A DNA stretch of 28,224 bases, from positions 1-28,224 of the IMG/VR virus record IMGVR_UViG_3300034102_001632. One strand, written 5' to 3'. A program made the translations under genes and the position numbers. This document shows, piece after piece, positions 1,479-28,154 of the stretch. Source of the DNA: a virus. Below the pieces are notes generated by a model. The model worked only from the letters and a program-made list of their open reading frames with translations, did no database searches and was not told the origin of the DNA. Position 1 is the first letter of the stretch; every line of letters begins with the position of its first letter.

Positions 1479-1883
1479 ATGATTAACTTTAATTTTGGTA
1501 AAAAGAAACCAGATAAAAAGCAACTTATAATACTCAGCGTTGTATTATCTTCTATTATCGCAGCACTCTCACAATGTACAGGAGTATCTGAAAATGGACT
1601 TTGGGATTTACTGGATGAAGTTCAAAGAAAATATTTCTCACAAACTATTCTCAATGAGATTTTTATTCAAGATCCTGACAAAGTAGAACGCAGAGTCAAA
1701 CGAGATATAGATCGAGCACTTGATGAAGCGATTCCAGAATATAATCGCATCATTGAAGAAGCAGATAAACGTTATAAACCAAGATATTCTGAGAAACCAC
1801 CAGATGGTAGTGAAGCACAAAGACTGCTTGGTGGGGAAATGAGAATCTGTGCTCCCTGGGTTGACGACTGCCCTAAAGAGTAG
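1479..1883 (+). CDS. Small membrane-anchored protein, possible inner-membrane spanin-like
   Basis: 134 residues. A Lys-rich N-terminus (GKKKPDKKQ) is followed by one hydrophobic segment at residues about 15-32 and then a long, charged, largely helical region, ending in a Cys-containing tail (MRICAPWVDDCPKE). This is a type II topology: short basic cytoplasmic end, one membrane pass, charged periplasmic domain. That shape, two genes after a secreted peptidoglycan hydrolase, is what an i-spanin looks like, but no family motif is visible and no o-spanin partner is recognisable, so this is inference. A lipoprotein reading (LSQC at the end of the hydrophobic segment) is unlikely because Gln precedes Cys. 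The promoter for the tRNA genes lies in its last codons; its TAG stop abuts the TATAAT box. Confidence 0.65.
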   Translation: MINFNFGKKKPDKKQLIILSVVLSSIIAALSQCTGVSENGLWDLLDEVQRKYFSQTILNEIFIQDPDKVERRVKRDIDRALDEAIPEYNRIIEEADKRYKPRYSEKPPDGSEAQRLLGGEMRICAPWVDDCPKE

Positions 1884-1889
1884 TATAAT
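1861..1889 (+). promoter_or_regulatory. Sigma-70-type promoter TTGACG-17-TATAAT for the tRNA cluster
   Basis: TTGACG at 1861-1866, a 17-base spacer and TATAAT at 1884-1889, with the stop codon of the upstream gene (1881-1883) directly before the -10 box. Predicted start near 1896. Confidence 0.65.
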
Positions 1890-1894
1890 ATCAG

Positions 1895-1959
1895 AGTTGA
1901 GAGATCAACTGCGGCACTCCCCTTCGGTAGGTTCAGGAGTGGCGGCTATAGGAACCTAC
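1895..1959 (+). ncRNA. Leader RNA with 5' GNRA hairpin and compact H-type pseudoknot, upstream of tRNA-Arg
   Basis: At the predicted transcript start AGTTGA (1895-1900) pairs with TCAACT (1905-1910) around a GAGA tetraloop. Next CACTCC (1915-1920) pairs with GGAGTG (1936-1941), and GTAGGTTC (1927-1934), inside that loop, pairs with GAACCTAC (1952-1959) downstream. The stems of 6 and 8 perfect pairs interleave, with loops of 6, 1 and 10 bases: the geometry of a classic H-type pseudoknot. It ends five bases before tRNA-Arg. No ORF is in this stretch. It could be a small RNA, a processing signal or a known phage RNA motif that I cannot name with confidence. Confidence 0.55.
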
Positions 1960-1964
1960 TTTAT

Positions 1965-2038
1965 GGGTTAGTAGCTCAGATGGATAGAGCAATTCACTTC
2001 TAATGAATTGGTCGGGGGTTCGAGTCCCTCCTAACCCG
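1965..2038 (+). tRNA. tRNA-Arg (anticodon TCT)
   Basis: Cloverleaf: acceptor GGGTTAG/CTAACCC, D stem GCTC/GAGC, anticodon stem ATTCA/TGAAT with loop CTTCTAA (anticodon 1999-2001), T arm with GTTCGAGTC. CCA is not encoded. It reads AGA, frequent in the AT-rich glycan genes of this window. Confidence 0.95.
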
Positions 2039-2061
2039 TTGGAGATTTATTCTCCAATTTT
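2039..2061 (+). other. Inter-tRNA hairpin with T run
   Basis: TTGGAGA (2039-2045) pairs with TCTCCAA (2051-2057) around TTTAT, followed by TTTT. It fills the spacer between tRNA-Arg and tRNA-Asn; a processing signal or weak attenuator. Confidence 0.5.
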
Positions 2062-2147: not shown

Positions 2148-2148
2148 T

Positions 2149-2250
2149 TGGAAGGTCTGGAAATGTTCGGGTCTTCCATACGAGTCGGGATCATCATATC
2201 CGACTCACTAAATCCTAAGTTTTCTTAGGTCGGGGACTTGATCACCCCCG
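2149..2250 (+). other. Chain of hairpins in the tRNA-Asn to tRNA-Thr spacer
   Basis: About 110 bases without a gene. Four stems follow one another: TGGAAG/CTTCCA (2149-2178, long loop), GAGTCGG/CCGACTC (2182-2206), CCTAAG-TTTT-CTTAGG (2214-2229) and CGGGG/CCCCG (2231-2250). No tRNA can be folded from it. Confidence 0.5.
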
Positions 2251-2256
2251 CTCGTT

Positions 2257-2330: not shown

Positions 2331-2332
2331 CT

Positions 2333-2404
2333 TGACGAAACTCAAATTTCGTCATATACTTTACAAGTCCGTGTGAAGTGAAGTGCTGGGAGAGAAATCT
2401 CCCA
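2333..2404 (+). other. Two perfect hairpins between tRNA-Thr and tRNA-Gly
   Basis: TGACGAAA (2333-2340) pairs with TTTCGTCA (2347-2354). TGGGAGA (2387-2393) pairs with TCTCCCA (2398-2404) around a GAAA tetraloop (GNRA type), ending four bases before the next tRNA. Confidence 0.55.
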
Positions 2405-2408
2405 CATT

Positions 2409-2623: not shown

Positions 2624-4111
2624 ATGAAACTCAAACAACTGATGCTTGCACCTGTTGCTCTGGGAATGGTTGCTCCTGTTGCTGCGAATGCCGCAGACCT
2701 TAATATGGCAGCAGTCAACCAATATTCCACTTCGGAACAAGTCACAAGCATTACTCAACTGTCTGATGTCCAACCCTCGGATTGGGCGTATCAGGCCCTC
2801 AGCAACCTTGTGGATCGTTATGGTTGCGTGGCAGGATATCCTAACGGAACCTTTGGTGGTGGTAAGGCAATGACCCGTTATGAGGCAGCAGCACTTCTGA
2901 ATGCTTGCTTGGATCGTGTAACCGAAGTGACTGATGAACTTCAACGTCTTTCAAAAGAGTTTTCTGAAGAACTTCTAGTTATTCGTGGTCGTGTTGATAA
3001 ACTAGAAGCACAAGTTGGTCAACTTCAAGCAACTCAGTTCTCCACTACATCTAAACTTCGTGGTGAAGCAACCTTCGTTCTTGGTGGTGTAGAAGGTGCT
3101 CGTCTTGCTAACGGAACTAACGTTGGTAACACCGCTTTCAACTATGATGTTCGTCTGAACTTTGATACTTCTTTCACTGGTAAGGATTTGCTGAAGACTC
3201 GTCTGCGTTCTGGTAATTTCTCCAGTCAACCCTTTGGTTCTTCCTCGTCTCTGTTCAAACTGGATAAGGCAGAAAGCACTTCCAATCAAGTGCAACTTGA
3301 CCGTCTGTACTACCAGTTCCCTGCTCTCACTAAAGGTCTTAATCTGACTGCTGGTGCTTTGGTTCGTAACACTGAGATGTCATGGATTCCTACTGCATAT
3401 AAGTCTGACATTCTCGACTTCTTTGCTGTTGCTGGTGCTCCTGGTGTCTATAACAAGGCAACTGGTTCTGGTTTCGGTGCTCAATGGGCACAACCTACTA
3501 AGAAAGGTAAGGGTGGTTTCGTTGCTGGTGTCAACTATGTGGCACAGAACGGTTCTGATTCCACCAAAGGTGAATTTGATGCTGCTGGTGCTCTGAATAC
3601 TCTGGCACAGATCGGTTATCGTGCTCCTCAGTACGGTATTGCATTCGGTTATCGTAATGGTACTGAAGGAACTCGTATTCGTACCTTTAATGGTGTTGCT
3701 GGTAATGGTGGTACTCTTGCTGCTAATCAAACCTCCAACGGTTATGCTCTGAATGCTTACTGGCAACCCAAGAAGTCTGGTATCATTCCTTCTGTGAGTG
3801 GTGCTTATGGGTGGAACACTGTAGAAGGTCCTGCTACTCCCAAGGCTGCTACTAAGTCCGAGACTTGGTTTGCTGGTCTTCAATGGGCAGATGTATTTGC
3901 CAAGGGTAATGCTGCTGGTTTCGCTATCGGTGCCCCTGGTAATGCTGCTTCCCTCACTAAGGATGCTCTGATGTGGGAAACCTTCTATCGTTATCGTGTG
4001 AGTGACAACATTAGTATCACTCCTGCTGTGTTCTATGTGTCCAACAACCAAGGTCTGAAGAATGCTTCTTCTAACTACGGCGGTGTGATTCAGACAACCT
4101 TCCGTTTCTGA
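2624..4111 (+). CDS. Cyanobacterial-type outer-membrane porin (SLH domain plus OprB/Som-like barrel)
   Basis: 495 residues with the full layout of cyanobacterial Som/OprB-type porins. Residues 1-23 are a signal peptide ending in ANA|AD. Residues about 46-98 are an SLH domain (QLSDVQPSDWAYQALSNL, then YPNGTFGGGKAMTRYEAA), which anchors such porins to the cell wall. Residues about 102-137 form a coiled coil. The rest is a Gly/aromatic-rich beta-barrel ending in TTFRF, with the C-terminal Phe used for outer-membrane assembly. It should form a diffusion channel for small solutes. ATG 2624 is chosen because it begins the signal peptide; an upstream in-frame start adds residues without that character. 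Codons favour GGT, GCT, CGT and AAC, more biased than in the glycan genes, suggesting high expression. It has its own early- and late-type promoters. Intact and in frame; probably acquired from a host. Confidence 0.9.
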   Translation: MKLKQLMLAPVALGMVAPVAANAADLNMAAVNQYSTSEQVTSITQLSDVQPSDWAYQALSNLVDRYGCVAGYPNGTFGGGKAMTRYEAAALLNACLDRVTEVTDELQRLSKEFSEELLVIRGRVDKLEAQVGQLQATQFSTTSKLRGEATFVLGGVEGARLANGTNVGNTAFNYDVRLNFDTSFTGKDLLKTRLRSGNFSSQPFGSSSSLFKLDKAESTSNQVQLDRLYYQFPALTKGLNLTAGALVRNTEMSWIPTAYKSDILDFFAVAGAPGVYNKATGSGFGAQWAQPTKKGKGGFVAGVNYVAQNGSDSTKGEFDAAGALNTLAQIGYRAPQYGIAFGYRNGTEGTRIRTFNGVAGNGGTLAANQTSNGYALNAYWQPKKSGIIPSVSGAYGWNTVEGPATPKAATKSETWFAGLQWADVFAKGNAAGFAIGAPGNAASLTKDALMWETFYRYRVSDNISITPAVFYVSNNQGLKNASSNYGGVIQTTFRF

Positions 4112-8580: not shown

Positions 8581-8712
8581 ATGACCCCTTATGAGTTTCT
8601 TGCTTCTCTCAAGAGCAAGTGGTGCGGATGGGGAATTCTTTCTCCGCCTGGTTTCCAATTTCCAGTTAAAGAATTGGTGGCGAGCCTGAGTTACCAGAGG
8701 TGGGTTGCATAA
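8581..8712 (+). CDS. 43-residue hypothetical protein
   Basis: ATG 8581 has GGTGGAG about 7 bases upstream. Trp/Gly/Pro-rich ([18 protein letters not shown]) ending in SYQRWVA; its last codons and TAA lie inside the terminator stem at 8698-8720. A longer reading from 8500 overlaps the previous gene and is less likely. Function unknown. Confidence 0.55.
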
Positions 8713-28009: not shown

Positions 28010-28054
28010 GGTAAACAAATGTTACGAAATACTCATATTTCTTAACATTGTCAA

Positions 28055-28154
28055 ACACCCCACAAACCGAGACCTCTAGGGTGTATAAATTACGTCTCTC
28101 ATACCCAGTCTGAGGGTGACTGGGGAATAGTATCACCACCATTTCCCTGATGGT
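28055..28154 (+). ncRNA. Folded psbA leader with pseudoknot and two hairpins
   Basis: ACACCC (28055-28060) pairs with GGGTGT (28079-28084); GAGAC (28069-28073) inside that loop pairs with GTCTC (28094-28098), so the stems interleave as a pseudoknot. CCCAGTC (28104-28110) pairs with GACTGGG (28118-28124), and ACCAT (28138-28142) with ATGGT (28150-28154). The leader from the predicted start is about 165 bases without an ORF. PhotoRC motifs are known upstream of psbA in cyanophages and this may be one; not confirmed. Confidence 0.55.

What the first reader, a model, noticed from the sequence alone, without database searches (positions are those of the whole stretch)
1895..1964. Compact H-type pseudoknot in the leader of the tRNA cluster
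Seen: interleaved perfect stems of 6 and 8 pairs (1915-1920 with 1936-1941; 1927-1934 with 1952-1959), preceded by a GNRA hairpin at the predicted transcript start and ending 5 bases before tRNA-Arg. No ORF is present. Such an arrangement is unlikely by chance. Inference: a small regulatory RNA, a riboswitch-like element, or a structure protecting the tRNA precursor.
Basis: partly seen in the sequence, partly recalled or inferred. Interest (0 to 1): 0.7.

Follow-up and report, generated by a model that had tools for sequence, protein, structure and literature searches.

The report
Conserved cyanophage pseudoknot small RNA
A short knotted RNA that many viruses of ocean and lake cyanobacteria carry, one copy each, usually fused in front of a transfer-RNA gene, looks like a self-standing viral small RNA, and it sits in the same slot where related viruses carry a known toxin-blocking RNA.

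Summary
At 1915-1959 two perfect interleaved stems (6 and 8 pairs) form an H-type pseudoknot, after a GAGA hairpin that starts 5 nt after a -10 box, and about 5 nt before tRNA-Arg. Stems alone are only moderately unlikely (about 0.1 expected per window strand), but comparison settles it: in 84 distinct homologues both stems pair in every sequence, with compensatory changes, around near-invariant loops. No Rfam match. The reading as a tRNA-leader element does not hold generally: it stands before tRNA-Arg, tRNA-Pro, gp32, purM, a tail-tube gene and others, sometimes followed at once by another promoter; one copy per genome (24 records), patchy among cyanophages, none found in hosts. That fits a trans-acting small RNA. 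Key context: in S-SRM01 the syntenic slot holds an orphan abiF RNA (an RNA antitoxin family); abiF RNAs sit directly 5' of tRNAs in 58 of 106 distinct places; contig L150 has both modules in tandem. A third RNA occurs either with its own terminator or fused to a tRNA. Best explanation: an anti-defence, orphan-antitoxin-like RNA (0.4); target unknown, expression untested.

The parts
1861..1889 (+). sigma-70-type promoter TTGACG-17-TATAAT
   Evidence: 11 of 12 consensus letters; in 83 of 88 distinct homologues 5 or 6 nt separate the -10 box from the first pair of P1
1895..1910 (+). P1, 5'-terminal hairpin (6 pairs, GAGA loop); its first base is the predicted transcription start
   Evidence: (4 of 6 pairs change on both sides)
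1911..1914 (+). GCGG joining segment; C1912 and G1913 could pair with G1944 and C1943 and extend P2 past a 1914/1942 mismatch (G.G; A.G in 18 places; C-G in L430)
   Evidence: pairs 1912/1944 and 1913/1943 never vary in what was seen, so not testable by covariation
1915..1920 (+). P2 (pseudoknot stem 1), 5' strand CACUCC
1921..1926 (+). loop L1, CCUUCG; CCUU is near-invariant
1927..1934 (+). P3 (pseudoknot stem 2), 5' strand GUAGGUUC
1935..1935 (+). loop L2, single A between P3 and P2, near-invariant
1936..1941 (+). P2, 3' strand GGAGUG
1942..1951 (+). loop L3, GCGGCUAUAG; consensus GCGGC(G/U, rarely A)A(U, rarely C or A)AG
1952..1959 (+). P3, 3' strand GAACCUAC
1965..2039 (+). tRNA-Arg(UCU), first tRNA of the cluster; RNase P cleavage at its 5' end would set the 3' end of the small RNA (inference)
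   Evidence: tRNA 1-4 nt after the maximally extended P3 in 46 distinct homologues

Best explanation
The feature is a single-copy small RNA gene of T4-like cyanophages (P1 hairpin plus H-type pseudoknot, about 65 nt). Shown: the structure and its conservation, its own promoter, a predicted start site at a base-paired 5' end, its single copy, its changing neighbours. Inferred: it is transcribed early by the host polymerase; P1 blocks 5'-end-dependent decay; where it precedes a tRNA, RNase P frees it and makes its 3' end; it then acts in trans by presenting the conserved loops to a protein. Most likely that protein is an RNA-regulated toxin of a host abortive-infection or toxin-antitoxin system, which the RNA holds silent, as an orphan antitoxin. 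The last step rests on context (same slot as orphan abiF antitoxin RNA), not on a found toxin.
For: Covariation in P1, P2 and P3. One strong copy in each of 24 records; absent from S-SRM01 and from 10 of 10 other named cyanomyoviruses: accessory, patchy. Unrelated downstream genes; in 12 of 47 distinct places without tRNA an 11-of-12 promoter lies between the RNA and the next gene. 83 of 88 distinct places start P1 5-6 nt after a -10 box. Syntenic replacement by an orphan abiF RNA in S-SRM01; the same 5'-of-tRNA placement of abiF RNA in S-CREM1 and S-SZBM1 and in 58 of 106 distinct places; both modules in tandem in L150; no Abi_2 gene in 12 of 12 abiF-bearing records, while 5 of 8 host abiF RNAs examined have an Abi_2 gene beside them. 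AbiF RNA neutralises AbiF by direct binding (PMC12373285, abstract and passages). A third RNA is found either terminated on its own or fused to a tRNA.
Against: No cognate toxin was found. No bacterial copy: 40 of 40 pattern hits in one genome for each of 84,980 species score at most 20.6 bits against 54.6 or more for phage copies, and 386 cyanobacterial genomes give at best 28.0 bits with P2 missing; an antitoxin mimic should have a model in some host, as abiF does. It has no repeats, unlike ToxI. In many P-SSM2-like contigs an ATG follows about 20 nt after P3, as in a leader. No terminator of its own was seen. Expression was not tested.
Confidence: 0.4

Rival explanations
1. A trans-acting phage small RNA with another target: it binds a general host factor (RNase E, RNA polymerase, ribosome) or a phage protein such as gp32, and helps host take-over.
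For: The same single-copy, promoter-headed, neighbour-independent anatomy. One copy stands 5' of gene 32 (L108). RNase E is raised during infection of Prochlorococcus (PMC2518516, passages), so a protected 5' end makes sense.
Against: Patchy distribution (0 of 10 other cyanomyoviruses) is unexpected for a general take-over function; the shared slot with abiF RNA would be a coincidence. Only 1 of 121 places was seen beside gp32.
Confidence: 0.27
2. A cis-acting 5' leader: a stability cap that protects the tRNA precursor or mRNA from 5'-end-dependent decay, or aids RNase P or ribosome loading.
For: Start site at the first pair of P1; tRNA 1-4 nt downstream in 46 distinct places; ATG about 20 nt after P3 in many P-SSM2-like contigs.
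Against: Only one place in each genome carries it. In 12 of 47 distinct places without tRNA the next gene has its own 11-of-12 promoter directly after the RNA. The loops are far more conserved than a cap needs.
Confidence: 0.2
3. A riboswitch of the H-type pseudoknot kind that senses a metabolite and controls the next gene.
For: Size, pseudoknot and near-invariant loops resemble such aptamers (recalled, not tested).
Against: No Rfam match even at E 10; downstream genes unrelated and often tRNAs; no recurrent terminator or covered ribosome site.
Confidence: 0.05
4. A nascent-RNA antitermination element, of the HK022 put kind (recalled), that lets the polymerase read through a tRNA operon.
For: Position at the transcript start; sometimes heads a tRNA array.
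Against: In S-SKS1-like phages a new promoter starts right after it, so little is left to read through; single copy per genome.
Confidence: 0.05

Closest known systems
abiF RNA (RF03085), RNA antitoxin of AbiF
   Same: Small structured RNA, headed by a promoter and a leader hairpin in S-SRM01 and L150, single motif, placed a few nt 5' of a tRNA (mostly tRNA-Arg) in cyanophage contigs, no toxin gene in the records examined; replaces the pseudoknot in S-SRM01
   Different: Another fold and sequence (hairpin with GCCUCUCAACGAUGC); has known cognate toxins in bacteria, the pseudoknot has none yet
Pseudo-ToxI of phage PhiTE (mimic of the ToxIN type III antitoxin)
   Same: A phage RNA related to a pseudoknot antitoxin that acts in trans on a host toxin
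   Different: ToxI is a repeated unit and PhiTE needed an expanded pseudo-ToxI region; here one copy, other stems and loops (PMC5449768, passages)
RNA anti-CRISPRs (Racrs)
   Same: Solitary, phage-borne non-coding RNA module for anti-defence (PMC10651486, abstract and outline)
   Different: Racrs mimic CRISPR repeats; no such likeness was tested here
wcaG, manA and PhotoRC-II RNAs
   Same: Structured RNAs of cyanophages; wcaG and PhotoRC-II are in this window, manA lies near the pseudoknot in P-SSM2 and ACG-2014f
   Different: Those are typically in possible 5' UTRs of metabolic, exopolysaccharide or photosynthesis genes (PMC2864571, passages) and are longer; no covariance-model match to the pseudoknot
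T4 gene 32 leader pseudoknot (recalled)
   Same: H-type pseudoknot in a T4-like phage transcript leader; one copy here is 5' of gene 32
   Different: All other copies seen are elsewhere; the T4 one is cis-acting autoregulation

Membership tests
abiF RNA (RF03085) | match to the covariance model above 37 bits | tested here: not met
   none at 1840-1975; found in S-SRM01, S-SZBM1, L150 by the same kind of search
Any Rfam 15 family | match with E up to 10 in the 136-base stretch | tested here: not met
   0 matches
Type III antitoxin (ToxI, CptI, TenpI, AntiQ) | H-type pseudoknot | tested here: met
   by covariation only
Type III antitoxin (ToxI, CptI, TenpI, AntiQ) | tandem repeats of the unit | tested here: not met
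   one strong copy per record; the one ToxN locus over cut-off (L289) has a 35-nt repeat unlike it
Type III antitoxin (ToxI, CptI, TenpI, AntiQ) | toxin gene directly downstream | tested here: not met
   downstream are tRNAs or genes of other families in what was examined
Type III antitoxin (ToxI, CptI, TenpI, AntiQ) | binds and silences a toxin | not testable with these tools
   needs experiment
Riboswitch | recurrent class of controlled genes and an expression platform | tested here: not met
RNA anti-CRISPR | mimics a CRISPR repeat | not tested
   no repeat library at hand
tRNA-leader element | always 5' of a tRNA | tested here: not met
   61 of 121 places with tRNA within 60 nt, 51 without, 9 at contig ends
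Self-standing small RNA gene | own promoter, structure conserved apart from neighbours | tested here: met
   (promoter by consensus match only)
Self-standing small RNA gene | discrete stable transcript | not testable with these tools
   no transcript data

The most novel reading that the evidence does not exclude
The pseudoknot is the solo antitoxin (or decoy) of an undescribed RNA-silenced defence system of picocyanobacteria, and cyanophages use the 5' flank of tRNA genes as an exchangeable cassette site for RNA anti-defences, with RNase P, in place of a terminator, cutting out the RNA.
Probability: 0.33. Interest if true: 0.88.

Novelty: new variant of a known kind. Interest (0 to 1): 0.7.

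Why it matters
Cyanophages kill a large share of the main ocean and lake photosynthesisers, and few of their non-coding RNAs have a known role. This RNA is common, strongly constrained and not in Rfam. It comes with a testable rule: small RNAs, among them orphan RNA antitoxins, are parked directly 5' of phage tRNAs, in the same slot, and one can replace another. That would add a reason for phages to keep tRNA genes (as 3'-end makers for small RNAs) and points to RNA-silenced toxins in hosts where none is described.

Tried and rejected
Rfam scan with a permissive threshold for the pseudoknot: nothing. Relation to wcaG or manA: alignments share only short words such as UGCGG. Host copies: and 386 cyanobacterial genomes gave only chance matches. 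ToxN in cyanobacteria: 4 of 386 genomes at E 0.001, 1 over the cut-off; its antitoxin repeat is unrelated. DSL-LC02 keeps a similar upstream gene and tRNA-Arg but has neither RNA: the slot may be empty. Literature: searches in an open-access library list nothing that describes this element; most subscription papers and all preprints are missing there, so this is not proof of absence.

Selection effects. Rows of A1 were taken by a pattern that fixed GCGG, YYTT and GCGGCKATAGG and by at least 5 of 6 P2 pairs (117 places kept, 33 of them repeats merged into 84 distinct rows; one rejected, one at a contig edge). So the 100% for P2 leans on selection; P3 was not used to select. The scan, which leaves the 5' side free, gave, together with the loci already held, 119 distinct places: P3 8 of 8 in 117, P2 6 of 6 in 115 (partner-shuffled means 48.4 and 28.1; three of the eight P3 pairs are fixed by the pattern, and P2 was sought anywhere in the 25 nt upstream). 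Of the five not full, L210 is a chance match. The window's near relatives with UGCGA (14 of the 36 contigs, e.g. L003, L006) do not fit the regular expression and are missing from A1 and from the 121 places. 'Invariant' loops are not absolute: L3 may read GACAG, GAAAG or carry one extra base.

Full report
Observation. The perfect 6+8 pair geometry arises about 0.1 times per window strand in shuffled sequence, so it needed comparison.

Homologues. A pattern from the two stems found 36 contigs in IMG/VR; BLAST found named phages: S-SKS1, SynMITS9220M01, S-SCSM2R, P-SSM2, P-SSM5 and two single-cell virus records, then 57 Synechococcus phage records (among them the ACG-2014f group, S-SM2, Bellamy, S-B05, S-B43, S-H68, RB11-B) and 6 Prochlorococcus or marine records, RefSeq duplicates counted.

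Structure. The 84-row alignment was counted against P1, P2 and P3: 91.4% of 1680 cells pair (shuffled 75.1); 15 of 20 pairs change on both sides; P2 and P3 100% paired, P1 71% (its loop length varies, so alignment there is rough). P2 swaps CACUCC/GGAGUG, UGCUCC/GGAGCA, CAGUUC/GGACUG, UGACCC/GGGUUA, UUAUCC/GGAUAA; P3 swaps GUAGGUUC, GGUAGUUC, GGUGGUUC, GCUAGUUC, GACGGUUC, CAGGGUUC with their partners. A less selected set confirms it. The loops are near-invariant. Base 1914 opposite 1942 is G.G, A.G or, once, C-G, which fits a helix running on through a mismatch to 1912/1944; the outer two pairs never vary, so this stays a suggestion.

Transcript start. Over 89 distinct upstream stretches, 88 have a P1 (4-10 pairs, loops 3 to 40 nt); in 83 of the 88 the first pair lies 5 or 6 nt after the best -10 box (the other five lie 1, 1, 2, 9 and 10 nt after; L105 and L230 were dropped for short flanks, L140 has no P1). 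The -10 box was sought only within 22 nt of P1. A varying loop with a fixed start says that what matters is a paired 5' end.

Neighbours. Of 121 places, 61 have a tRNA within 60 nt, 51 have not, 9 are at contig ends. The 46 distinct ones with tRNA are 39 tRNA-Arg(TCT) and 7 tRNA-Pro(TGG), with 1-4 nt between the longest P3 and the tRNA. Elsewhere it precedes a phrog_3704 gene (annotated purM in P-SSM2), an AIR synthetase (purM, L140), gene 32 (L108), DUF6561 proteins, a phosphomannomutase-like gene, a tail-tube gene, a Phd-like antitoxin and unknowns. In the S-SKS1 type and its relatives a fresh TTGACT-17-TATAAT promoter follows at once (11 of 12 letters in 12 of 47 distinct places without tRNA; at 10 or more letters 15 of 47, against 31 of 940 in shuffles). 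The element is thus not the leader of one kind of gene.

Copy number and spread. R1 finds one strong copy in 8 of 9 and 16 of 16 records (two have an extra 17-bit fragment), the ninth being S-SRM01. It finds none in 10 of 10 other named cyanomyoviruses (a 14.5-bit match in Syn33 I take as chance), with two positive controls in the same call. No bacterial copy was found.

The slot. S-SRM01 shares with the window the upstream small ORF, four tRNAs in matching order and the porin gene, but between promoter and tRNA-Arg it has an abiF RNA (49.3 bits). S-CREM1 and S-SZBM1 carry abiF RNA 4 nt before tRNA-Gly and tRNA-Ala. L150 has promoter, abiF, tRNA-Tyr, promoter, pseudoknot, tRNA-Arg in a row. 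Otherwise the two did not meet in what I looked at: no abiF in 22 of 22 pseudoknot records, no pseudoknot in 18 of 18 abiF records; records are partly fragments and no test of exclusion was made. None of 12 abiF-bearing records has an Abi_2 gene. Cyanobacteria do have the full system: abiF RNA over the cut-off in 8 of 386 genomes, and of the one reading frame I tried beside each of the eight, five are Abi_2. AbiF RNA binds and silences AbiF (PMC12373285, abstract and passages). So a known kind of RNA antitoxin, without its toxin, holds the place that the pseudoknot holds.

A third RNA. GUGUGAAGGAAGUGC plus a variable hairpin stands before tRNA-Gly or tRNA-Leu in 15 of 27 distinct places; several of the rest end in a hairpin and a T-run right after a promoter-like -10 box, as stand-alone small RNAs. 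A variant lies in the window at 2371-2405 before tRNA-Gly. The same RNA can therefore be closed by a terminator or by a tRNA, which supports reading the 5' flank of phage tRNAs as a place for small RNAs.

Mechanism and limits. Shown: structure, conservation, promoter anatomy, single copy, neighbour independence, slot sharing. Inferred: expression, RNase P release, trans action, protein target, anti-defence. The weakest link is the lack of any bacterial model for the pseudoknot. Novelty: the RNA matches no Rfam family and no paper found in the searches named above describes it; the kind of thing it most resembles (solitary anti-defence RNA of a phage) is known, hence 'new variant of a known kind'.

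Noticed in passing
window 2332-2405: Promoter plus GTGTGAAGTGAAGTGC-hairpin leader directly before tRNA-Gly (2409); relatives occur before tRNA-Gly or tRNA-Leu or as terminated stand-alone RNAs in cyanophage contigs; no Rfam match.
   Followed up: partly
L046 1395-1497, L150, L294, L295, L298-L415: Orphan abiF RNA directly 5' of tRNAs is frequent in viral contigs; its leader has a further conserved stretch (GGAGGTCCAAACTTC) in S-SRM01 and L150.
   Followed up: partly
window 8591-8691 and 28043-28138: wcaG RNA (97.3 bits) and PhotoRC-II RNA (85.8 bits).
   Followed up: no
window 2624-4111: Porin-like gene (annotated porin in the syntenic place of S-SRM01); no PHROG match.
   Followed up: no
window 2148-2256: Spacer between tRNA-Asn and tRNA-Thr holds hairpin-like stretches, partly shared with S-SRM01 (GAAGGTCTGGAAATGT).
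   Followed up: no
L117 about 1995-2200: The tRNA-Arg sequence after the pseudoknot breaks off early and a 153-aa frame that was not identified follows: perhaps an interrupted tRNA gene.
   Followed up: no
L289 1331-1432: A ToxN-family gene in one small cyanobacterial genome is preceded by 2.9 copies of a perfect 35-nt repeat, a likely type III antitoxin array.
   Followed up: no
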